Below, in pieces: positions 1,227 through 9,863 of a DNA stretch of 9,863 nucleotides. How positions within the stretch are numbered: position 1 is the first letter of the stretch; the number at the start of each line of letters is the position of its first letter. The stretch lies in NCBI GenBank assembly GCA_040755715.1, contig JBFLXN010000105.1, positions 1-9,863 of the forward strand. Reading direction: 5' to 3'. Origin of the DNA: JBFLXN01 sp040755715 [NCBI: Candidatus Edwardsbacteria bacterium] (GTDB lineage: Bacteria; Edwardsbacteria; AC1; JBFLXN01). Below the pieces are notes generated by a model. That model was not told the DNA's origin, searched no databases, and saw only the letters and a program-made list of their open reading frames with translations. The position numbers and the translations under genes are program-made.

Positions 1227-1676
1227 ATGAAATTTTTAGTTGATAGTCCACTCGGCAAACTAGCAAAATTCCTGCGAGCCTGCGGGTTTGACACTGAATA
1301 TTTTGGGGGTATGAGCGCTTTCGCTTTGGTAAAACGGGCCCAACAAGAGAAAAGAACAGTTATTACCACCAATCCCAAATTATCTGAAAACCCCCCCATA
1401 AAAGTGGTAATGGTAAAAGAAGGAAAACCTAAATCTCAACTACAGACGGTGATAGAGGCCTTGAATATAAATTTAGCCACGGAAAATTTCTTTTCCCGAT
1501 GCTTGCTCTGTAATACTGAAGTTGAGAAAATTGACGGAGAAAAAGCTAAAGATTTAGTCCCTCTAAAAGTCTTTGAAACTTTTTCAGAATTTTGGCACTG
1601 CCCGAAGTGTGATAAAATCTACTGGCACGGCAGTCATTGGGAAAATATGAAGAAGAGAATTTTTTTGAAAGGGTGA
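1227..1676 (+). CDS. Mut7-C (PIN-like) domain protein with C-terminal zinc ribbon
   Basis: The 149-residue protein matches the Mut7-C RNase-type family: a PIN-like N-terminal half and a zinc-ribbon tail. The start MKFLVDSPLGKLAKFLRACGFDT (1-23) is the family's hallmark, with conserved Asp6. The ribbon ligands are Cys92 and Cys95 (RCLLC) plus Cys125 and Cys128 (CPKC), followed by the typical IYWHGSHWENM (131-141). Oddly, the acidic residues usually seen after the first motif and in the T-R-D loop are missing: residues 28-34 read GMSAFAL and residues 45-50 read VITTNP. Nuclease activity is therefore doubtful; it may bind RNA or act as scaffold. ATG 1227 is preferred over the upstream TTG at 1197, which lies in the hairpin; GGGAAG stands 9 nt before ATG. 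It stops 5 nt before the TPR gene, so the two are probably cotranscribed. Confidence 0.85.
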   Translation: MKFLVDSPLGKLAKFLRACGFDTEYFGGMSAFALVKRAQQEKRTVITTNPKLSENPPIKVVMVKEGKPKSQLQTVIEALNINLATENFFSRCLLCNTEVEKIDGEKAKDLVPLKVFETFSEFWHCPKCDKIYWHGSHWENMKKRIFLKG

Positions 1677-1681
1677 TAACT

Positions 1682-4600
1682 ATGGCTATTCAAAGCATCT
1701 TTCTTTTAAGTAGAGAACAAATCCTTCAGCGGGCAAAGAAATTGCGGGCTGAAGGCAAAAACAGCAAAGCCATTGACTTCCTTCGCTCAGGCATTAAGGG
1801 TGAGCCGGAAGACTTTGACCTGTATTTAGAATTAGCCTCTTGCCAACTCCAAGAAGGAGAAAATAAGGAAGCTACCCTCTCACTCAAAAACGCCCTCTCT
1901 TTGAAGCCGCAAAGAGATGAAGAGGTGATTCGTTTAGCCGAGGGAAGTTTTTGGGAGAAGAAAAGCTTGGAACTGGGTGAGTTCCTCTTTGAATTGGCTG
2001 TTGGCCGCCGGGACTTTGAAGGAGCAGTAAAGATTGTCTCCTCATTCTCTGGAAAGGAATTGCCACCCCTTTATAATCGCTATCTAAAGTTGGTAGAGAA
2101 TATTGAAAAATTCCGAGGCCCTGGCAAAGAAGAACCGATTACCCCGCGGGACATTCTGGTCTATTATTGCCTTGGCTTGATTTACGAAGCAAAAGAGCAA
2201 TTCCCCGAATTAGCTAAAATTTTCAATAGAATCTTGGAAGTGGCACCTTCGGAAACTGAAACTATTTTAAAAGAATACGAAAGAATCGCCAAGGAAAAAC
2301 ACGGTGAGGCACATCCATATTTAGCCCGTGGAGATATCTATGCCAAACTCTCCCAGCCTGAAAAGGCAGTGGAAGAATGGAGAGAAGCTACTAAAACCGA
2401 TGCTAATTCTATTCCAGCAGCTATTGAAAGGTTAGTAAAATTTCTACCCCAGAATCCCCAAATTGCCCCTGGCTGGGAAATCCTGGGCGACCTCTTTACT
2501 GTCAAAAAACGATTCTCTGAAGCAGTAACCGCCTATGATAAAGTTAGAGAAGCAGACCCGGAAAAAAGTGAAAGTTTGCTTCCGAAATACCGAGAAGTTA
2601 TCCGACTTGACCCGAAGAATCTCGCGGGCTATCTCTCCTTGGGTGACACTGCATCCAATATACATAAGTATGACCTCGCTTTAGCCTCATATAGCAAAAT
2701 TACAGAAATAGACCCCACCAAACAGGAAGAAGTCCTTAATCGCAGTCTCAAAATTCTAAAAGAAGAGCCGACTAATGCCTCCTGTCTCCATTTAGTTACT
2801 GATAGTTACCTTGCTTTGAACAGATTGGATTCAGCGATAGAAACCCTTTCACTGGCTTACAAAAAGGACCCTGAACTCTTTGAATTGGTAGCAGAAAGAT
2901 TAAATCTCATCTTAGAAAAAGACATCAATCATCAAACCGCTCTGGCACTTTTGGCAGAAATCTATTTTAAGAAAAAAGACATCAAAGGTGCCCTGGTGAT
3001 TCTTCGCCATTTGTTGAGTTTGAAAGATGGCCCAGAGTTAGTCATCCCTCAACTACAAAAAGCCCTCACAGATTTCCCTCTGGAAAGAGATGACCCCAGA
3101 CTCTTAACATTACAACTAACCTTAACCGAAGCCCTTGTGGCAAAAAAAGATTTCAAAGGGGCTCTGTTTAACATCGGTAAGATTTTAAGCAAAGATAAAT
3201 CAAAGGCAGAGAATTTTCTTCCCTTACTTGACCATCTCGCCAAATCAGACGAAGAAAATATCAAACCGGTGTTTGAACTCTACCGGCTTTTAGAACAGCA
3301 GGGCGTCAAAAGTCTCAGCTTAAACTGGGCTCTGGCGGAAAACCATCTCCTTTTGAAAAATTATCCAGAAGCGATGAAGAAATTCAATGTAATAATAAAC
3401 TCTGACGAAACTTTAAGACCGAAAGTTATTACCGCCTATCAGAGGACTCTGGAAAAAGACCCACAAGCTACGCCAGTGAGATTAGCCCTGATTGACCTTT
3501 ATTATCAGGAACAAAGACAAGAAGACTTACTGGCAGAGCTACAAACCATTGTTTCTACTGAACCCGCTCGTTTTGGAGAAATCTCTGCCTGGTATGAACG
3601 GCTTCTCAAGACCGATGAACGAAACCTCCCCTTGCGTAAATCATATATTGACCTTTTGGTCAAAGCTAAACTCTATCAGAAAGCGATTACTGAAGCCGAA
3701 AAGGCTATTTCAGTCTGGCCAGATAGAGAAGGGGCTTATTTTCTTTTAAAACTCAGTGAAGCCTTAATCTTCAAAGGGGAATTCAGTAAGGCAGTCGGAC
3801 ATCTATTAAAAGCGGTAACCCTGGATGGCTCACTAGCCGAGGAGTCGCTATCCTCCTTTAAGAAAATTCTTTCGGTAGAAGAAGAAAATATCCCTGCCCA
3901 TTATGGTTTAGCCAAGGTTCACCAATTGATGAAGGATTTTTCCTCGGCTATTGAAGAATTATCTCTAATTATTCGCCACGACCCAAAGAGAACTGAACAG
4001 GTCTTAAAAGAGGTAGAAAACATTGTGGAACAAGACCCCATTTGTGCCAAAGCACACCAACTTCTGGGAGAACTTCTGATTCAAAAAGGAGAAGAGGAAA
4101 GAGGGATGACGGAATTAGAAAGAGGAATGGAATTAGACCGTTCTTTGGTAGATAACATCCTCGGCAAATATCAACTCTTATTAGAAAAAAAACCGAAAGA
4201 GCCTGATAAAATTCGCTTCGCTTTAGCCCGGGCTTATATTGCCAAGGGACTCTACACTGCTTCAGTAAAAGAAATAGAAAAGGTCCTGGAGAGTGATTTT
4301 GGACATTATCATGAGTTTGCGCTTTTAGAATTGAAACGGATTGTGGAACTGCAACCTCAGGAAATCAAAGCCCGATACCTACTGACCAAAATCTATCAAA
4401 AGAAAAAAGTAACTGACTCTGCTGTAACTCTCTTAAGAGAAATCATTTCATTTGCCTCCGAAGAAATAGATGAGGTCTTAACCCGATTAAAAGAATTAGA
4501 AACAGAGGATCCGGAAAATGCCGTCACTCATTACGCCTTGGGCGATGTCTATTTAGAACAAGGTGAGGCAGAAAAAGCGGTAGAACATTATAACCGAGTG

Positions 4601-5554
4601 CTCTTTCTATATCCCGAAGAGTTGGAAAAAGTAATCGGCAAGTTACAGGGAGTAATCCAGAAGCAAATTGAATCTGCTCCTGCCTATCTGGCTTTAGGAA
4701 AAGCCCTCATCAAGCGTGGGCTACTCACTAAAGCCACAGAGTCATTGAACAAAGCCCGACAGATTGATGCCTCATTAAAAAATCCAGTCAAAGAAGGTTT
4801 GGAAGAAATTCTATCATTAGAGGCTAACCTTCTCCAAGCGGCAGAAAATTTAGGCCTCATCTATTTTGAAGGCGGAGAATATAGTAAAGCCAAAGATTTA
4901 TTAATTAAAGCGCTGAAGGCTCAATTGGACAAGGAAAGAACAATTGAACTAAATCTGTATCTTTCACAAACATTGACAAATCTGGGAAAGATGGAAGAGG
5001 CCAAACAAGTGCTTCTGAAACTTCAAGAACTTGACCCTGAAAATCAGCAACTTTATAAGATAATGAAAAGATTTGAAATAAAGTCTCTAAAATCTATCGT
5101 TGATGAAGCCAAAAGAAGAGTAGAATCTGCCCCAGATGACCAGGAGGGGAAGATTTTTTTGGCCTCACTCTACTCAGAAAAAATGAAGAGAGGAGATTGG
5201 GCGATTTCTTTACTCCAATTCACTCCTTTAAACGAAAGGATTTCTTTACTGCGGACAAAAGAGTTAGGCAAAGCCTTTCTGACAATGGGAGATTTAATGA
5301 GCGCAGTTGAAGTGATGCGCAATGTTCCCTTGGCTAGACACCCATTAAGTGAAGAAGAAATGGAATTGGCTTATACCCTTGGTGAGGCTTATGAAAAGAT
5401 GGGGAACTATCCAGCCGCCATTGCCGCCTATAAAAAAATCTACCTTGACGACATAAATTACCGGGATATAAAAATGAGGCTGGACAAAAACTACACTCAA
5501 CTCCTCCTTCAGGATTTAGAAAGGAAGAAGAAAGTGATAGAGAAAATGGGATAA
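1682..5554 (+). CDS. Giant TPR solenoid protein with a 52-residue super-repeat
   Basis: This 1290-residue cytoplasmic protein has no signal peptide, no membrane segment and no enzymatic domain that I can see; it is helical repeat almost throughout. Ordinary TPR pairs occur near the N-terminus (about 14-75) and C-terminus (about 1091-1124 and 1230-1263). Between them, units with the pattern YxxLGDxY...KxxxAIxxYxKIxxxDP start at residues 161, 213, 265, 317, 369, 421, 478, 548, 600, 652, 740, 792, 845, 898, 950, 1002 and 1054. Spacing is mostly exactly 52: a 34-residue TPR plus an 18-residue third helix (for example EEVLNRSLKILK, then EEPTNA). The longer gaps, 70 and 88, fit 52 plus an extra helix or an extra TPR. 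Such solenoids bind protein partners, but the partner here is unknown. ATG 1682 is chosen because AGGG lies 8 nt upstream; the frame opens earlier inside the preceding gene. Confidence 0.9.
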   Translation: MAIQSIFLLSREQILQRAKKLRAEGKNSKAIDFLRSGIKGEPEDFDLYLELASCQLQEGENKEATLSLKNALSLKPQRDEEVIRLAEGSFWEKKSLELGEFLFELAVGRRDFEGAVKIVSSFSGKELPPLYNRYLKLVENIEKFRGPGKEEPITPRDILVYYCLGLIYEAKEQFPELAKIFNRILEVAPSETETILKEYERIAKEKHGEAHPYLARGDIYAKLSQPEKAVEEWREATKTDANSIPAAIERLVKFLPQNPQIAPGWEILGDLFTVKKRFSEAVTAYDKVREADPEKSESLLPKYREVIRLDPKNLAGYLSLGDTASNIHKYDLALASYSKITEIDPTKQEEVLNRSLKILKEEPTNASCLHLVTDSYLALNRLDSAIETLSLAYKKDPELFELVAERLNLILEKDINHQTALALLAEIYFKKKDIKGALVILRHLLSLKDGPELVIPQLQKALTDFPLERDDPRLLTLQLTLTEALVAKKDFKGALFNIGKILSKDKSKAENFLPLLDHLAKSDEENIKPVFELYRLLEQQGVKSLSLNWALAENHLLLKNYPEAMKKFNVIINSDETLRPKVITAYQRTLEKDPQATPVRLALIDLYYQEQRQEDLLAELQTIVSTEPARFGEISAWYERLLKTDERNLPLRKSYIDLLVKAKLYQKAITEAEKAISVWPDREGAYFLLKLSEALIFKGEFSKAVGHLLKAVTLDGSLAEESLSSFKKILSVEEENIPAHYGLAKVHQLMKDFSSAIEELSLIIRHDPKRTEQVLKEVENIVEQDPICAKAHQLLGELLIQKGEEERGMTELERGMELDRSLVDNILGKYQLLLEKKPKEPDKIRFALARAYIAKGLYTASVKEIEKVLESDFGHYHEFALLELKRIVELQPQEIKARYLLTKIYQKKKVTDSAVTLLREIISFASEEIDEVLTRLKELETEDPENAVTHYALGDVYLEQGEAEKAVEHYNRVLFLYPEELEKVIGKLQGVIQKQIESAPAYLALGKALIKRGLLTKATESLNKARQIDASLKNPVKEGLEEILSLEANLLQAAENLGLIYFEGGEYSKAKDLLIKALKAQLDKERTIELNLYLSQTLTNLGKMEEAKQVLLKLQELDPENQQLYKIMKRFEIKSLKSIVDEAKRRVESAPDDQEGKIFLASLYSEKMKRGDWAISLLQFTPLNERISLLRTKELGKAFLTMGDLMSAVEVMRNVPLARHPLSEEEMELAYTLGEAYEKMGNYPAAIAAYKKIYLDDINYRDIKMRLDKNYTQLLLQDLERKKKVIEKMG

Positions 5555-5576
5555 ATAAGGCTCCTGTATATCGCTT

Positions 5577-5596
5577 TTTGCAATAAGTATTGCAAA
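5577..5596. promoter_or_regulatory. Palindrome upstream of the sigma-54 promoter, possible activator site
   Basis: TTTGCAATA-AG-TATTGCAAA is a perfect 9-bp inverted repeat with a 2-bp centre, followed at once by a further half-site ATTGCAATAGC (5596-5606). Its centre lies about 118 bp upstream of the transcription start expected from the sigma-54 promoter at 5680-5695. Enhancer-binding activators of sigma-54 usually bind at about that distance. It also lies 22 bp after the TPR stop codon, but with no T run it is not an intrinsic terminator. The activator role is inferred from position and symmetry. Confidence 0.5.
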
Positions 5597-5679
5597 TTGC
5601 AATAGCAAAAGACTCTTTCTGAAAATCGCCGTAATTATAAGTCTCAAGATTATCTTGACTTAGAATTTGACTTACTCTG

Positions 5680-5695
5680 TGGCACGAATCTTGCT
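5680..5695 (+). promoter_or_regulatory. Sigma-54 (RpoN) -24/-12 promoter
   Basis: TGGCACGAATCTTGCT matches the RpoN consensus TGGCACG-N4-TTGC[A/T] at every defined position, with correct spacing between the -24 GG and -12 GC. It lies in non-coding DNA between two genes and points toward the riboswitch and the outer-membrane protein gene. Transcription would start near 5705. Control would require an ATP-dependent activator, and a palindrome sits at the usual distance upstream. No protein gene follows for 900 bp, so the product is either a very long leader or a non-coding RNA. Confidence 0.8.
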
Positions 5696-5741
5696 ATATT
5701 ATTTTAATGGAAGACAGCTCTTTGAAAAAGCCACAGAATTA

Positions 5742-5916
5742 CACAGAAAAAATAGAAATTCGTAGAAATATAAGAAGAAATTCATAGAAATAGATTGAAA
5801 CTGATAGAAATTAATTAAAAAGATGAATTCCAATGAGTTTCCATAAATTTCAATGAATTTCAACAAATTTCTGTATTATATTTCAATAAATTTCTATTAG
5901 TTTCCGTATTTCTGTG
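5742..5916. repeat. Long imperfect AT-rich inverted repeat
   Basis: The left half is rich in TAGAAAT-type words (5752, 5763, 5785, 5805) and the right half in ATTTCAA/ATTTCTA words (5847, 5857, 5867, 5880, 5889). The ends pair: CACAGAAA (5742-5749) matches the complement of TTTCTGTG near 5909-5916, and TAGAAATATA-like left words match TATATTTCAATAAATTTCTA on the right with gaps. The transcript could fold into a hairpin of about 175 nt. A tract like this may be a degenerate dispersed repeat. No gene overlaps it. Confidence 0.6.
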
Positions 5917-6007
5917 TTAACCCCGTTAGAAATTACCAAAAAGTATGGGAAAATTCCAAGACTAAACTTGCAAAATGTAAGTTAGAGAAGATTTCTAACG
6001 GGGTTAA
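5917..6007. repeat. 17-bp perfect inverted repeat, CCCCGTTAGAA family, copy 1
   Basis: The arms TTAACCCCGTTAGAAAT (5917-5933) and ATTTCTAACGGGGTTAA (5991-6007) are perfectly complementary over 17 bp and enclose a 57-nt spacer. The spacer holds a smaller hairpin, ACTTGC/GTAAGT (5965-5970 and 5976-5981, one G-T pair). It ends 29 nt before the aptamer. The same core recurs at 6219-6266, so this is a repeat family rather than a one-off structure. Confidence 0.85.
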
Positions 6008-6035
6008 TCTATGGCTAAATATCTTGTTTTGCATT

Positions 6036-6123
6036 TTGTGAAACGAAAGGGCAAATCCACCGTAAGGTGGAGACGCAAAGCCACGGGTTCCAGAAAGGGA
6101 TAGCCGAGCCGCCGAAATCACAA
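6036..6123 (+). promoter_or_regulatory. Cyclic-di-GMP-I (GEMM) riboswitch aptamer
   Basis: The conserved GEMM blocks appear in order and at proper spacing: AAAGGGCAAATCC (6046-6058), a hairpin TCCACC-GTAA-GGTGGA with a GNRA loop (6056-6071), GACGCAAAGCC (6072-6082), CACGGGTTCC (6082-6091), GGGATAGCC (6097-6105) and GCCGCCGAA (6108-6116). The closing P1 stem is TTGTGA (6036-6041) with TCACAA (6118-6123). A competing 7-bp pairing, ATCTTGT (6020-6026) with ACAAGAT (6120-6126), shares the P1 3' strand and could be part of a switch. The class senses the second messenger c-di-GMP. The nearest downstream coding sequence is the outer-membrane protein 480 nt away, beyond a terminator. Recognised by eye against the known Vc2-type consensus. 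Confidence 0.92.
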
Positions 6124-6142
6124 GATGGATTTGAATAAAAAT

Positions 6143-6312
6143 AGTAGCGAGTAGAAAGTATTGGGTTAATTGAGTTTGTTGAGTTTTTTGGGTTCATTGG
6201 GTTTTAATAACCCGATAAACCCCGTTAGAAGGCTTGCACATCGCAGCGACGACCTTCTAACGGGGTAAACTCAATAAACCGAGAAAACCCCGTAAACCCA
6301 ATTCTCGCTACT
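6143..6312. repeat. Large nested hairpin between aptamer and terminator
   Basis: Several complementary blocks stack in register: AGTAGCGAG (6143-6151) with CTCGCTACT (6304-6312), and ATTGGGTT (6160-6167) with AACCCAAT (6295-6302). In competition with the latter, GGTTAATTGAGTTT (6164-6177) pairs with AAACTCAATAAACC (6267-6280) at 13 of 14 positions. The CCCCGTTAGAA pair at 6219-6266 sits at the centre. The result is a 170-nt fold of a size and symmetry that suggest a small dispersed or mobile repeat, possibly inserted between the aptamer and its expression platform. Confidence 0.7.
6219..6266. repeat. CCCCGTTAGAA inverted repeat, copy 2
   Basis: ACCCCGTTAGAAGG (6219-6232) and CCTTCTAACGGGGT (6253-6266) form a perfect 14-bp stem around a 20-nt loop. 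The outer 11 bp of each arm are identical to the corresponding part of the repeat at 5917-6007, while loop length and sequence differ. The two copies flank the riboswitch. Confidence 0.85.
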
Positions 6313-6318
6313 TGCCGA

Positions 6319-6336
6319 CCCCGATGAAAATCGGGG
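6319..6336 (+). other. GAAA-tetraloop hairpin
   Basis: CCCCGAT-GAAA-ATCGGGG is a perfect 7-bp stem closed by a GNRA tetraloop, a shape typical of structured RNA. No T run follows, so it is not a terminator by itself. It stands between the large nested hairpin and the intrinsic terminator and could be part of the expression platform of the riboswitch. Confidence 0.55.
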
Positions 6337-6364
6337 GAGGCTTATCTTGAAAATGTAATTTTTC

Positions 6365-6410
6365 AAAATCCGTCTGCCCTTTCGCAAAAATAGCAGACGG
6401 ATTTTTATTT
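6365..6410 (+). terminator. Strong intrinsic terminator
   Basis: AAAATCCGTCTGC (6365-6377) pairs perfectly with GCAGACGGATTTT (6393-6405) around a 15-nt loop, and the stem runs into TTTTTATTTT. The A run before the stem means it could also work on the minus strand. It separates the riboswitch region from the outer-membrane protein gene. GGATTT just after the aptamer (6127-6132) is complementary to AAATCC in the left arm (6366-6371), so an anti-terminator pairing is possible but short. Confidence 0.85.
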
Positions 6411-6427
6411 TGGTAATGATATGATGA

Positions 6428-6530
6428 AACCACGAGATTTCACAAGATTTACACAAGATAAAAATTTAATTGAAAAAATTATTAAAAATATTTTTGTCTA
6501 ATCTATGAAAATCTGTGTAAATCTCTGGTT
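6428..6530. repeat. Imperfect inverted repeat of CACAGATTT-type words
   Basis: AACCACGAGATTT (6428-6440) pairs with AAATCTCTGGTT (6519-6530) with one bulge, and ACACAAGAT (6451-6459) with ATCTGTGT (6511-6518) with one bulge; the AT-rich centre is also loosely symmetrical. The word style matches the CACAGAA/TTCTGTG ends of the repeat at 5742-5916, which suggests a related degenerate family. I see no convincing sigma-70 promoter inside it. Confidence 0.55.
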
Positions 6531-6562
6531 AAATCGAACAGAACCTTTGTTTTAGGACAGTA

Positions 6563-6597
6563 GGGCAGGCGTCCTCGCCTGCCCGAGCGAAGCGAGG
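6563..6597 (+). promoter_or_regulatory. GC-rich hairpins overlapping the ribosome binding site of the next gene
   Basis: GGGCAGGCG (6563-6571) pairs with CGCCTGCCC (6576-6584) around TCCT. A competing stem, CCTCGC (6574-6579) with GCGAGG (6592-6597), uses part of the same sequence and would hide the first bases of the AGGTGA ribosome binding site (6595-6600) of the outer-membrane protein gene. The two folds exclude each other, so they could act as a translational switch. The block is strikingly GC-rich for its surroundings and may be a dispersed repeat. Confidence 0.5.
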
Positions 6598-6605
6598 TGA
6601 GAACA

Positions 6606-8153
6606 ATGAGAAAAAAAGAAAAGGTTCTAATCGTGGGGGTGTGGATAGTTTGGTCTCTGATTCTCTCTCTAAACGCCAAAGGAGAAGAATCTATTTCTAC
6701 CTTTCAAGGTTCCTGTCTTGGTTCTCTATCTTTTAGCGCACCAATGAATTCACTAAACTTAGAGGAATCAAAAGTAGGATTTGGTTGGGGGCTTAAAGGT
6801 GCCACTATTAACCCAGCCGCCTTAGGCAAAATCCACAGAGTAGAATTCTCCACCACTTACAATTTAGAGAAGAATTGGCAGGGGAGTCGACGATTTTTCC
6901 TTGATGAGAGAAAAACAAGACCGTTTGCCTTTCCTTCAAACTTCTCTCTAAGCCAGAGCGGTGGAATTCAATCATTTATCGCTGGCTTAAGAGCAGGAAG
7001 TCTAGTTCTCGCATTCGGCTACCTGGGGAACGAAGCCTTAAATCTTCATTTAACGTTAAATGGCGCCGGACAGCAGGCAATTTCTTATCATACTAATTAT
7101 TTCCTTACCTCAACTGAGGTTCCTGGCTTACCCTCTGAGGCAAAAATCCCAATCCAAGTCTTATTAGAAGGAAATCTTAATTACCGGGGAAGTGGTGCAC
7201 TGGACTTGAACCTTTCAAGAAGACCATTTTATTTAGCCTTAGCCGGCAGTAGAGGACCCTGGTCATTTGGAATTGCCTGTAAGCCTTTTATGATTGATGG
7301 CTCAATTGTTGCCAATCTAACAGTTGCCGGTCAAGGAGAGTTGGAGGGTAAAGTTACTTCTTTAAACGAGGATTGGAAAGTGAATCTGACCACTAAGGTG
7401 AGTACTGACCTTAATTCCCAGGAATTACTTCGTCTTCAGGGACAAGGGCAGATGAGTGCAAGTGGCTTCTCTTTGATGGCTGGAGCCTTACTGCGAACCG
7501 AAAGAGTTGGTCTGGGGATTTCCTTAGAAAAGGTTACACCGCTGAGCTTGTTCACTCAAGGAAGACTATCTTTTCGCTATCCCAATGACTTTCCCCAGAT
7601 TGAAACGATTTCTCCCACGGACATCTCAGTGGATACGGCGAACAGAAGAATTGAAGGCCAGACAGAGCTGAAATTAACTGAAATCTCCCTTGGTGAAGGA
7701 CAAATCAGGCAAGCCTTTATCTATGAAATCCCAGCCGGGCTTCTGCTGCGGGCTGGAGCCGGAGTGAAATTGTTCCCCTGTCTGTCTTTCGCCTTAGCCG
7801 CTGGAGGTTCTGTCGGACGGCAACAGAATGGTCTGGAACATCGCTTCTCCAGTTTTGAATTGGAAATGAAACCTTCTCGCTATTTCTCTATTCAGAGTGG
7901 ATTGAATTCTGACTGGCTGAACTATTCTTCAATGCCTCTACTCCCGACTGCCTATTTTAATAATGGAGTAATGATTGCCAGAGGAAAAGTAGCTTTTGTC
8001 TTCTGTCCTTTCTCTGGTTTAGAAGTTCAACTTGGTGCGGTTGGTGATAGCCGGACTGCTGCTGCCAGTTTCCTGGAAGGATTTTCTATGATGTCTTTTA
8101 GCGGAATCCGGCGGTTAGCGGTTTATACCGGTGGGATTTACCTCCACTTCTAA
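6606..8153 (+). CDS. Outer-membrane beta-barrel protein, FadL/OmpP1-like
   Basis: A 515-residue exported protein. Residues 1-24 form a signal peptide: basic RKKEK, hydrophobic VLIVGVWIVWSLILSL, and likely cleavage after LNA (24). The mature N-terminus carries GATINPAALGKI (65-76), resembling the NPAGLA/NPAALG turn of FadL-type transport barrels. The rest alternates polar and hydrophobic residues as beta strands do, with many Gly and Ser, and ends YTGGIYLHF, the terminal Phe recognised by the Bam machinery. No cytoplasmic domain or lipobox is seen. A FadL-like transporter of hydrophobic compounds is plausible; a general porin or secretion barrel cannot be excluded. ATG 6606 is chosen because AGGTGA stands 5 nt upstream; the GTG at 6597 lies within that site. 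Upstream elements suggest control by sigma-54 and c-di-GMP, if the transcript reads this far. Confidence 0.75.
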   Translation: MRKKEKVLIVGVWIVWSLILSLNAKGEESISTFQGSCLGSLSFSAPMNSLNLEESKVGFGWGLKGATINPAALGKIHRVEFSTTYNLEKNWQGSRRFFLDERKTRPFAFPSNFSLSQSGGIQSFIAGLRAGSLVLAFGYLGNEALNLHLTLNGAGQQAISYHTNYFLTSTEVPGLPSEAKIPIQVLLEGNLNYRGSGALDLNLSRRPFYLALAGSRGPWSFGIACKPFMIDGSIVANLTVAGQGELEGKVTSLNEDWKVNLTTKVSTDLNSQELLRLQGQGQMSASGFSLMAGALLRTERVGLGISLEKVTPLSLFTQGRLSFRYPNDFPQIETISPTDISVDTANRRIEGQTELKLTEISLGEGQIRQAFIYEIPAGLLLRAGAGVKLFPCLSFALAAGGSVGRQQNGLEHRFSSFELEMKPSRYFSIQSGLNSDWLNYSSMPLLPTAYFNNGVMIARGKVAFVFCPFSGLEVQLGAVGDSRTAAASFLEGFSMMSFSGIRRLAVYTGGIYLHF

Positions 8154-8163
8154 CCTGGGAGCT

Positions 8164-8244
8164 ATTTATCCCGCACTCCGCAAAGAAGATATAATGTTTT
8201 GAAATTAAAGAAGTTAACCTCACTTTACGGAGTGCGGGATAAAT
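8164..8244. repeat. 17-bp perfect inverted repeat between convergent genes
   Basis: ATTTATCCCGCACTCCG (8164-8180) and CGGAGTGCGGGATAAAT (8228-8244) are perfectly complementary with a 47-nt spacer. The right arm supplies the last codons of the oxidase gene (its final residues LSRTP and part of the preceding Asp codon), and the stop TAA lies just inside the loop. It may act as a two-way terminator for the converging genes, although the loop is long and there is no T run. It may equally be a dispersed repeat that reached into the gene end. Confidence 0.75.
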
Positions 8245-9625
8245 CAAAAATCTTACCTGGATTTAAAATATTATTAGGGTCAAATGCTTGTTTGATTCTT
8301 TTCATAAGTTCAATTTGTGTCAAATCAAGCCCGAGGCTCAAATAGGATTTCTTGGAAAGTCCGATGCCGTGTTCTCCGGAAATCACCCCTCCTAAATCAA
8401 TCACTTTTTGAAAGAGGTCACGGATTAAGCAGGGCAATCTTTCCTGCCATTCTTCTTGAGCCACCTCTCCCTTCAAAATATTTACATGCACATTGCCATC
8501 GCCTAAGTGCCCAAAAGAAATTATTTCTAATCCATATTTTTCTTCTAATTTTTTTAATTCACTCATCAGGTCAGAGATTTCTCTGCGTGGCACCACTACA
8601 TCTTCTCTCTCCCGAATTGGGCTTTTTGCTGTGATGGCTTCAGTCAGCATTCGGCGGGCTTCCCAGAGTCTTTCTTGAGATGGACGCTCTTCTGCCACTA
8701 AGATATCCATTGCTCCAAATTGCAAGGCAATTTCGCCCAGTCGTTCGTATTGAGTTTGTAATTCCTCTTTTGTTTCCCCATCTAATTCTATGAATAACTG
8801 CGCCTCCGCCTCACTGGCGGGAAGTTTTTTCTGTAAGAAATTCTCACAGGCTAAAACAGCTTTCTTTTCCATAAATTCCATAGTAGCGGGAATAATGCAT
8901 TGGTGAATGATTTTCACTACTGCTTTAGTCATTTCTGTCAAAGAATTGAAGGGAACTAATAGGTCTATCTTGCATCTTGGCAGGGGTAAGAGTCTCAAAG
9001 TGGCTTCGGTCACTACACCTAAAGTTCCTTCCGAACCAATGATTAGGGAAATCAAATCATAGCCAGTAACATTTTTGACTATCTTCCCACCCAGGTGGGA
9101 GATTTCGCCAGTGGGAAAGACCACTTCCAGTCCGCAGACATAGTTTTTAGTCACTCCATATTTGAAGGCTCTCGGTCCACCGGCACATTCGGCAATGTTC
9201 CCTCCGATGCTACAAGAATCAAGGCTGGCAGGGTCTGGCGGATAAAAGAGCCCTTGTTTTTCTACCTCCTTTCCCAATTCCCCGGTAATCACTCCTGGCT
9301 CAGTAATCACCATTAGATTTTCTAAATCAATTTCTTTAATTTTATTCATTCTTTCTAAGGAGAGGACTATTCCACCCTGGCAGGGCAATGCCCCCCCCGA
9401 AACACCCGTGCCGGCACCCCGTGGTGTTACCGGAATTTTTTGGTGATTAGCCAATTTCAGGATTTCCGAGACCTGGCTGGCATTCAGAGGCTTCACCACT
9501 ACATTGGCGAAGAATTTCAACCCGAAGGTTTCGTCATGAGAATAGGGCTCAAGTGCCTCTTCCCCAGTTACCACATTTTCTTCACCCACAATTTCTTTTA
9601 ATATGGGAATAATCGGTGCAACCAT
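8225..9625 (-). CDS. glcD: FAD-linked 2-hydroxyacid oxidase (glycolate/D-lactate dehydrogenase, GlcD family)
   Basis: A 466-residue soluble flavoprotein oxidising glycolate, D-lactate or a related 2-hydroxyacid to the 2-keto acid, passing electrons to an iron-sulfur partner or quinone. The N-terminal FAD-binding (PCMH) domain shows VVVKPLNASQVSEILKLAN (42-60), PRGAGTGVSGG (68-78), PPDPASLDSCSIGGNIAECAGG (129-150), KYGVTKNYVCGLEVV (155-169) and GSEGTLGVVTEATLRLLP (197-214). The C-terminal domain shows FGHLGDGNVH (371-380) and GGVISGEHGIGLSKK (412-426), with the expected His residues, then AFDPNNILNPGKIF (447-460). Substrate cannot be told from sequence. ATG 9625 gives the standard family start; an upstream TTG at 9673 abuts the transposase stop and would add 16 atypical residues. 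No clear ribosome binding site is visible. No GlcF-type partner lies in the window. A run of eight G codes for part of GVSGGA. Confidence 0.93.
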   Translation of the reverse strand: MVAPIIPILKEIVGEENVVTGEEALEPYSHDETFGLKFFANVVVKPLNASQVSEILKLANHQKIPVTPRGAGTGVSGGALPCQGGIVLSLERMNKIKEIDLENLMVITEPGVITGELGKEVEKQGLFYPPDPASLDSCSIGGNIAECAGGPRAFKYGVTKNYVCGLEVVFPTGEISHLGGKIVKNVTGYDLISLIIGSEGTLGVVTEATLRLLPLPRCKIDLLVPFNSLTEMTKAVVKIIHQCIIPATMEFMEKKAVLACENFLQKKLPASEAEAQLFIELDGETKEELQTQYERLGEIALQFGAMDILVAEERPSQERLWEARRMLTEAITAKSPIREREDVVVPRREISDLMSELKKLEEKYGLEIISFGHLGDGNVHVNILKGEVAQEEWQERLPCLIRDLFQKVIDLGGVISGEHGIGLSKKSYLSLGLDLTQIELMKRIKQAFDPNNILNPGKIFDLSRTP

Positions 9626-9651
9626 AATGGCTAAGCAGATGCAAACGGATG

Positions 9652-9668
9652 GAAGCAGATACTGCTTC
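9652..9668. promoter_or_regulatory. Palindrome and direct repeats between transposase and oxidase genes
   Basis: GAAGCAG-ATA-CTGCTTC is a perfect 7-bp inverted repeat with a 3-bp centre. The octamer AAGCAGAT occurs here (9653-9660) and again exactly 20 bp away (9633-9640), two helical turns. The site lies 27 bp upstream of the oxidase ATG and just after the transposase stop. It could be an operator for the oxidase gene, or the sub-terminal end of the insertion element. Confidence 0.45.
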
Positions 9669-9673
9669 GTCAA

Positions 9674-9863
9674 CTAATTATCGCTATCATGTTTCTGGTA
9701 ATTTCTATGAAAGAAATATTTATGTATAGCCTTCGTCATATTAGATGGCCAGCGAAAATTACTCCCTGCAATAACCTTCTTGTAAAGGTCACCAAACACT
9801 GGCTCAATAGGATTAAGCCAGGGGCTGTAGGTGGGCAAGGCCAAGACTTTGAGCACAGCCTTG
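9674..9863 (-). mobile_element. IS630-type transposase, C-terminal part (runs off the window)
   Basis: The frame is open to the window edge and ends at TAG (9674-9676), giving 62 visible residues. LPTYSPWLNPIEPVFGDLYKKV is the last DDE motif of IS630-family transposases (usual form LPPYSPxLNPIExxWxxLK); the Glu of NPIE is the third catalytic acid. The aromatic residue after it is Phe instead of the usual Trp. The N-terminal helix-turn-helix and the first two catalytic Asp residues lie outside the window, so completeness cannot be judged. The terminal repeat of the element should lie between here and about 9626, but I cannot identify it without the other end. Its transcription runs toward the oxidase gene and could drive it. 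Confidence 0.85.

What the first reader, a model, noticed from the sequence alone, without database searches (positions are those of the whole stretch)
6036..6123. c-di-GMP-I riboswitch far from any gene, with repeats between aptamer and terminator
The aptamer is textbook, but the next coding sequence begins 480 nt later and a 170-nt nested hairpin separates the aptamer from the only good terminator. Normally the expression platform is adjacent. Either a repeat has been inserted into a riboswitch, or the aptamer belongs to a longer RNA with its own role. GGATTT after the aptamer could pair with AAATCC of the terminator, a possible anti-terminator.
Basis: partly seen in the sequence, partly recalled or inferred. 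Interest (0 to 1): 0.72.

Follow-up and report, generated by a model that had tools for sequence, protein, structure and literature searches.

The report
Riboswitch stretched by repeat-like palindromes
A bacterial RNA sensor for the messenger c-di-GMP appears to keep a complete off-switch although about 200 bases of repeat-like palindromes sit between its sensing part and its stop signal; they seem to fold up and loop out, which would leave the sensor far more time to catch its messenger.

Summary
The aptamer is real: Rfam RF03167 (c-di-GMP-I-GGC), 62.8 bits against a cut-off of 59, plus a 6-bp P1 outside the model. The nested hairpin, the distant terminator and the 474-483 nt to the next gene are there too. 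The main half was missed: ten bases of the aptamer's own 5' strand (6044-6053) are perfectly complementary to the terminator's 5' arm and loop (6375-6384); 50 terminators behind 76 other aptamers reach at most 6. Length-by-length folding gives an OFF switch: the antiterminator wins once 6384 is made; the terminator wins at 6398-6401 if the aptamer is held. In the model the switch works alike with and without the 200-nt block. The block is built from two palindrome families that recur in unrelated IMG/VR contigs, one nested in the other, so 'repeats inserted into a riboswitch' is the best reading. Without the block the ligand-binding window would be about 57 nt (61 reported for Cd1); with it, about 257. 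No sister genome was found, so insertion is inferred. Ligand, direction and target are inferred; nothing was tested at the bench. New variant of a known kind.

The parts
5917..6007 (.). Palindrome of family A just upstream of the aptamer, 17-bp perfect arms, CCCCGTTAGAA termini
6034..6125 (+). Aptamer with P1: Rfam match 6041-6117 (RF03167); P1 6036-6041/6118-6123, extendable by U-A and U-G to 6034/6125
6044..6053 (+). P strand of antiterminator helix AT1 (CGAAAGGGCA), part of the aptamer 5' strand
6127..6135 (+). Segment behind the aptamer (GGATTTGAA); 6127-6132 pair with 6366-6371 (AT2)
6143..6312 (+). Nested self-folding block; palindrome of 9-base units (family B, about 6160-6306)
6218..6267 (.). 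Second family A palindrome, nested inside family B (14-bp arms 6219-6232/6253-6266)
6319..6336 (+). Small hairpin CCCCGAT/ATCGGGG behind the block, no U tract
6362..6385 (+). Switching (T) strand: terminator 5' arm and part of its loop; pairs either with AT1/AT2 partners or with the terminator 3' arm
6365..6411 (+). Intrinsic terminator: arms 6365-6377 and 6393-6405, loop 6378-6392, U tract 6402-6411
6606..8153 (+). Putative target gene (GTG 6597 or ATG 6606); no Pfam or NCBIfam match

Best explanation
A c-di-GMP class I transcriptional OFF riboswitch for the gene at 6606-8153. Without ligand, once RNA polymerase has made position 6384, the aptamer's own 5' strand (6044-6053) and the segment behind the aptamer (6127-6135) pair with the 5' arm and loop of the terminator, and the gene is read. 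With c-di-GMP bound, the 5' strand is locked in the aptamer, the terminator closes at 6398-6401 and transcription stops at 6402-6411. The roughly 200 nt between the switching sites are palindromic elements of two dispersed families, one nested in the other; they fold on themselves, stay out of the switch and lengthen the time between aptamer completion and decision. Shown by computation: aptamer match, complementarities, alternative folds and energies, recurrence of the palindromes elsewhere. Inferred: ligand, direction of control, target gene, and that the elements came in by insertion.
For: RF03167 above cut-off with an extra P1. The MFE fold of 6036-6420 is the antiterminator. Growing-transcript folding: free RNA AT1 0.92 at 6384 and 0.81 at 6401; holding the aptamer costs 10.4-11.9 kcal/mol from 6384 to 6398; with the aptamer held the terminator forms at 6398-6401. 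Ten-base complement of aptamer 5' strand and terminator: at most 6 in 50 terminators behind 76 other aptamers; 15 of 20000 shuffles and 0 of 9637 other window stretches reach 10. Costs at 6384 and 6392 are the same without the block. Family A palindromes: 8 in five IMG/VR contigs, two of them multi-copy, against 0 for one rearranged control; family B pattern in 3 contigs.
Against: At full length the free RNA also prefers the terminator (0.80 at 6410-6420), so the switch needs the antiterminator to outlive passage of the U tract. 39 of 40 shuffled blocks preserve AT1 as well, so the fold gives no sign that the block's self-folding matters. The conserved aptamer motif makes some complementarity easier: 5 of 76 other aptamer 5' strands reach 8-9 with this terminator. 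No convincing promoter near 6030. No relatives, hence no covariation and no empty site. The energy model knows neither ligand, tertiary contacts nor real kinetics.
Confidence: 0.68

Rival explanations
1. A broken or unresponsive relic: aptamer and terminator survive, but palindromes before, inside and behind the platform have uncoupled them; the gene is always terminated or read from elsewhere.
For: Crowding of palindromes around the switch; no convincing promoter; the long-platform riboswitch Bc1 binds c-di-GMP yet does not respond (PMC11218506, abstract); the aptamer is only 3.8 bits over its cut-off with a divergent P3.
Against: P1, the ten-base AT1 complement, AT2 and terminator are all intact and mutually exclusive.
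Confidence: 0.15
2. The block is an evolved part of the platform, not an insertion: the long hairpin is kept to hold the switching strands together or to time the decision.
For: The block folds strongly between the switching strands. With it the free RNA keeps the antiterminator slightly longer (AT1 0.36 with, 0.11 without the block at 6406).
Against: Its two parts recur as palindromes in unrelated contigs, and a second copy of family A lies outside the switch (5917-6007).
Confidence: 0.1
3. The aptamer belongs to a separate regulatory RNA, or to the end of the upstream TPR-gene transcript, ended by the terminator at 6411, with no role for the downstream gene.
For: 474-483 nt to the next gene, about 480 nt behind the TPR stop codon on the same strand; no clear promoter.
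Against: A terminator that merely ends an RNA has no reason to carry a ten-base complement of the aptamer 5' strand.
Confidence: 0.05

Closest known systems
Cd1, c-di-GMP-I OFF riboswitch of Clostridioides difficile (PMC9262584: abstract, introduction part 1, section 22 part 1, one passage seen)
   Same: c-di-GMP-I aptamer; transcriptional OFF logic; aptamer and terminator can coexist; transient antiterminator that later refolds to the terminator; kinetic control
   Different: Cd1's antiterminator is described as T + A + H (the aptamer-stabilising 3' strand); here the main helix uses the 5' P strand. Cd1's binding window is 61 nt; here about 257 nt by my arithmetic
Bc1, c-di-GMP-I riboswitch with a long expression platform, Bacillus thuringiensis (PMC11218506: abstract and passages seen)
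   Same: c-di-GMP-I aptamer far from the start codon, long structured platform with terminator
   Different: Bc1: up to 220 bp between aptamer and AUG, two terminators, no response to c-di-GMP; canonical GAAA loop and receptor. Here: 474-483 nt, one terminator, palindromic repeats in the platform, no canonical receptor
MITEs and small palindromic elements such as BOX/RUP/SPRITE and Rickettsia palindromic elements (review PMC10969869: passages seen)
   Same: Short palindromes, some inserted into one another, mostly between genes, some in frame within ORFs
   Different: Families A and B have no name that I know of; no transposase or target-site duplication was linked to them. The review only says it is conceivable that MITEs form riboswitches or terminators

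Membership tests
c-di-GMP-I riboswitch (clan with RF03167) | Covariance-model score above the curated cut-off | tested here: met
   RF03167 62.8 bits, cut-off 59
c-di-GMP-I riboswitch (clan with RF03167) | Three-helix fold with P1 | tested here: met
   P2 and P3; P1 6036-6041/6118-6123
c-di-GMP-I riboswitch (clan with RF03167) | Conserved core bases (G20, A47, C92 of Vc2; the numbering named in PMC11218506, its placement here from recall) | tested here: inconclusive
   Cores GGGC, GACGCAAAGCC and GCC match the 25 others by eye; no structure-based assignment
c-di-GMP-I riboswitch (clan with RF03167) | GAAA tetraloop and its receptor (typical, not universal) | tested here: not met
   P2 loop GUAA, P3 without the usual pattern; feature named as typical in PMC11218506
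c-di-GMP-I riboswitch (clan with RF03167) | Binds c-di-GMP | not testable with these tools
   needs in-line probing or ITC
Terminator-type (OFF) riboswitch | Terminator and antiterminator that exclude each other, coupled to the aptamer | tested here: met
   (prediction)
Terminator-type (OFF) riboswitch | Ligand-dependent termination | not testable with these tools
   needs single-round transcription
Miniature inverted-repeat element (MITE) | Short palindrome with conserved termini in many places | tested here: met
   8 exact-arm palindromes in five IMG/VR contigs plus two in the window; rearranged control 0
Miniature inverted-repeat element (MITE) | Target-site duplication, or an empty site in a relative | not tested
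   no sister genome found
Miniature inverted-repeat element (MITE) | Partner transposase | not tested
   an IS630-type fragment lies at 9674-9862; its ends were not compared with the palindromes

The most novel reading that the evidence does not exclude
Mobile palindromes have become a built-in timer: by looping out of the antiterminator they lengthen the ligand-binding window from about 57 to about 257 nt without touching the switch, making a kinetically controlled c-di-GMP switch markedly more sensitive. Insertion of self-folding elements between switching strands would then be a general route by which riboswitch sensitivity evolves.
Probability: 0.15. Interest if true: 0.62.

Novelty: new variant of a known kind. 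Interest (0 to 1): 0.42.

Why it matters
Whether riboswitch sensitivity is set by the time between aptamer and decision is open: PMC9262584 (section 22) cites the argument that a longer platform raises sensitivity, yet notes that its own simulations of a 1.2 s and a 3.0 s window challenge it. This leader looks like a natural experiment: an otherwise ordinary OFF switch with about 200 nt of self-folding, apparently neutral DNA before the decision point. It also offers a c-di-GMP-I switch whose antiterminator is made from the aptamer's own 5' strand, and it warns that distance from gene or terminator alone does not mean that an aptamer is no switch.

Tried and rejected
Sister genomes. None is held for the window. 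In L001-L100 a tblastn search found no neighbour of the window except one weak TPR match (19% identity, L063). The 518-aa protein: 0 of 60 genomes (the tool notes that an empty answer shows nothing by itself) and no relative in viral contigs. GlcD: 236 of 247 genomes of G001's phylum (Acidobacteria by title) match, best 55%. Family A, gap 20-50: 0 of 101 genomes of G020's phylum, probably Armatimonadota. The organism remains unidentified.

Similarity searches with 5555-6596: one 38-base match in a Thermocaproicibacter plasmid, lying in the aptamer; none in phages. The 518-aa protein: single-sequence model, mean pLDDT 31, unusable; no fold search was made.

Literature (9 searches). c-di-GMP-I-GGC is named in 3 papers (listing; one seen by passages, where it is a list entry). 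Family A arms occur in 4 papers, by title and abstract start unrelated to repeats. Searches for riboswitches with MITEs (1 paper), palindromic repeats (11 papers, 10 listed) and palindromic elements (7) showed, by titles and abstract starts, no such insertion; most of these papers were not opened. PMC2700814 was seen by passages and is not relevant. Searches were general searches (one found nothing).

An attC reading of the TCTAAC/GTTAGA boxes was dropped: their order and spacing do not fit (from recall). The idea that only a self-folding block preserves the switch was not borne out by the energy model: AT1 stays above 0.5 in 39 of 40 shuffles, though one shuffle lowers the cost of holding the aptamer to 2.2 kcal/mol.

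Full report
What is there. The window is 9863 bases of an unidentified bacterium: purM (140-1171), a Mut7-C domain gene (1197-1676), a large TPR protein (1637-5554), a 1-kb gap, a 518-aa ORF without Pfam or NCBIfam match (GTG 6597 or ATG 6606 to 8153), a GlcD-like oxidase on the other strand (8225-9673) and the end of an IS630-type transposase. The finding lies in the gap.

The aptamer. Rfam assigns 6041-6117 (+) to RF03167, c-di-GMP-I-GGC, 62.8 bits against a gathering score of 59; one overlapping lower match of the same clan was left out and not named. Beside 25 other aptamers of the clan, the cores GGGC, GACGCAAAGCC and GCC are kept, but the P2 loop is GUAA and P3 is short, without the CUAA/CUAC ... 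AUG pattern that many of the others have (a few others, such as L143, lack it too). It is a divergent rather than a textbook member. That it binds c-di-GMP rather than a related dinucleotide is inferred.

The switch. The minimum-energy fold of 6036-6420 is not aptamer plus terminator but an antiterminator (-148.2 kcal/mol, z = -9.35 against 100 shuffles). Both use the 5' arm and loop of the terminator (arms 6365-6377 and 6393-6405). AT1 takes away bases that the folded aptamer needs, so bound aptamer and AT1 exclude each other.

Order of events, from folding growing transcripts. Up to 6372 the free RNA keeps the aptamer helices (mean pair probability 0.75-0.82). At 6384 AT1 is at 0.92 and AT2 at 0.89, and holding the aptamer costs 11.9 kcal/mol; the cost stays between 10.4 and 11.9 up to 6398. 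At 6401 the free RNA is still antiterminated (AT1 0.81, terminator 0.01), while RNA with the aptamer held has the terminator (mean 0.75 at 6398 and 0.97 at 6401 over the pairs already made; 0.73 at 6401 over all twelve pairs). From 6404 the free RNA drifts to the terminator too (0.40, 0.53 at 6406, 0.80 at 6410-6420). This is the profile of a kinetic OFF switch: bound means stop, free means read-through provided the antiterminator outlives passage of the U tract. Cd1 of C. difficile is described in like terms, including later refolding to the terminator (PMC9262584, section 22).

Is the complementarity more than chance? In 20000 shuffles of the terminator's arm and loop, 15 reach ten or more pairs with the 30-base P strand region; of 9637 other 28-base + strand stretches none does, the best being 9. 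Part of it comes cheaply, because the aptamer motif is conserved: 5 of 76 other aptamer 5' strands reach 8-9 with this terminator. The better control is other riboswitches with their own terminators. I took 76 aptamers: 20 loci, 29 of 30 (L126 dropped as the same aptamer as L082) and 27 new ones. These are the loci that the tools handed out, not all matches listed; five of the 20 (L088, L089, L093, L099, L100) score under 50 bits with RF03167 and some may be false. 47 of 76 have a terminator within 600 nt by my rule (two records hold less than 610 nt). Among 50 terminators the longest complement to the aptamer 5' strand is 6, against 10 here. In 27 of 76 the first terminator starts 6-95 nt behind the aptamer, in 20 it starts 204-447 nt behind and is probably unrelated; here it is 248 nt. 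Distance and use of the 5' strand are thus unusual in this sample, which covers the order of a Desulfovirgula genome, one phylum that is probably Armatimonadota, and a few other genomes. I cannot say how rare 5'-strand antiterminators are elsewhere.

The block. 6143-6312 folds on its own (-75.2 kcal/mol for 6141-6312) and lies between the AT2 strand and the terminator; a small hairpin follows at 6319-6336. When 6141-6340 is left out of the fold, the cost of holding the aptamer at 6384 and 6392 is unchanged (11.9 and 10.4 kcal/mol) and both outcomes remain. It is not wholly without effect: at 6406 the free RNA keeps AT1 at 0.36 with the block and 0.11 without. With the block shuffled the cost at 6392 is 9.7 on average (sd 2.9, lowest 2.2) and AT1 stays above 0.5 in 39 of 40 cases, so in this model the block's palindromic nature is not needed. 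The model hardly charges for loop length and cannot judge a benefit of self-folding.

Where the block comes from. Its core, 6218-6267, has 14-bp arms ACCCCGTTAGAAGG/CCTTCTAACGGGGT; the same 11 bases bound a second palindrome, 5917-6007, just upstream of the aptamer. Scans of IMG/VR for exact 11-base arms found 2 stretches at gap 20-50, 1 at gap 51-81 and 5 at gap 3-19: 8 palindromes in five contigs, one of which holds two and another three copies. One control with rearranged arms at gap 20-50 found 0. A stricter pattern with 13-base arms at gap 5-35 found 0, and gap 20-50 found 0 of 101 genomes of one phylum. Interiors differ between copies. By eye, L109 2297 and L110 4876 sit just before a ribosome-binding site; L168 3962 lies inside an ORF, read as PVRNWISNG. 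Family A is thus a dispersed palindrome. Around it, 6160-6306 is a palindrome of 9-base units (TTGGGTTNA/TTGAGTTNA); one exact pattern of it hit 3 IMG/VR contigs, where it is again a palindromic stretch that by eye lies between genes. No control was run for family B. In the window A interrupts B. Elements inserted into one another are described for S. pneumoniae (PMC10969869, passages). L109 and L110 hold no Rfam match.

History and consequence. The most economical history is an ordinary OFF riboswitch whose platform received B and then A. Without 6141-6340 the stretch from the end of P1 (6123) to the arrival of the T strand (about 6380) would be about 57 nt, close to the 61-nt binding window of Cd1; with it, it is about 257 nt, or 13 s against 3.0 s at 20 nt/s (own arithmetic; Cd1 figures from PMC9262584). 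The limits 6141-6340 are my choice; leaving out 6143-6312 alone would give about 87 nt. The paper cites the argument that a longer platform gives more time to bind, and also says that its simulations challenge it.

What is not shown. No sister genome was found, so neither an empty site nor covariation is available. Ligand, direction and target are inferred. No convincing promoter was found near 6030. Bc1, another long-platform member, binds c-di-GMP and yet does not respond (PMC11218506, abstract), so a dead switch remains possible.

Verdict. A c-di-GMP-I OFF riboswitch of known kind, with an uncommon antiterminator and a platform stretched by repeat-like elements. New variant of a known kind; interest 0.42.

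Noticed in passing
window 5555-6596: The whole gap is a pile of palindromes: TAGAAATT-type arrays with 39-nt arms (5777-5861), family A (5917-6007), the block (6143-6312), CCACGAGATTT.../...AAATCTCTGG (6430-6530) and GGGCAGGCGTCCTCGCCTGCCC ahead of the start codon.
   Followed up: partly
L168 3962-3990 and 3245-3324; L109 2297-2354; L110 4876-4943: Family A palindromes in viral contigs sit either inside or at the start of reading frames (peptide PVRNWISNG, ISNGV) or just before a ribosome-binding site.
   Followed up: partly
window 8164-8244: 22-nt inverted repeat, 95% complementary, between the ends of the convergent 518-aa and GlcD-like genes; perhaps a shared terminator.
   Followed up: no
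window 9674-9862 (-): C-terminal fragment of an IS630-type transposase running off the window.
   Followed up: no
order of G004: 37 of 40 genomes carry c-di-GMP-I aptamers over the cut-off, up to 12 matches in one genome (G418).
   Followed up: no
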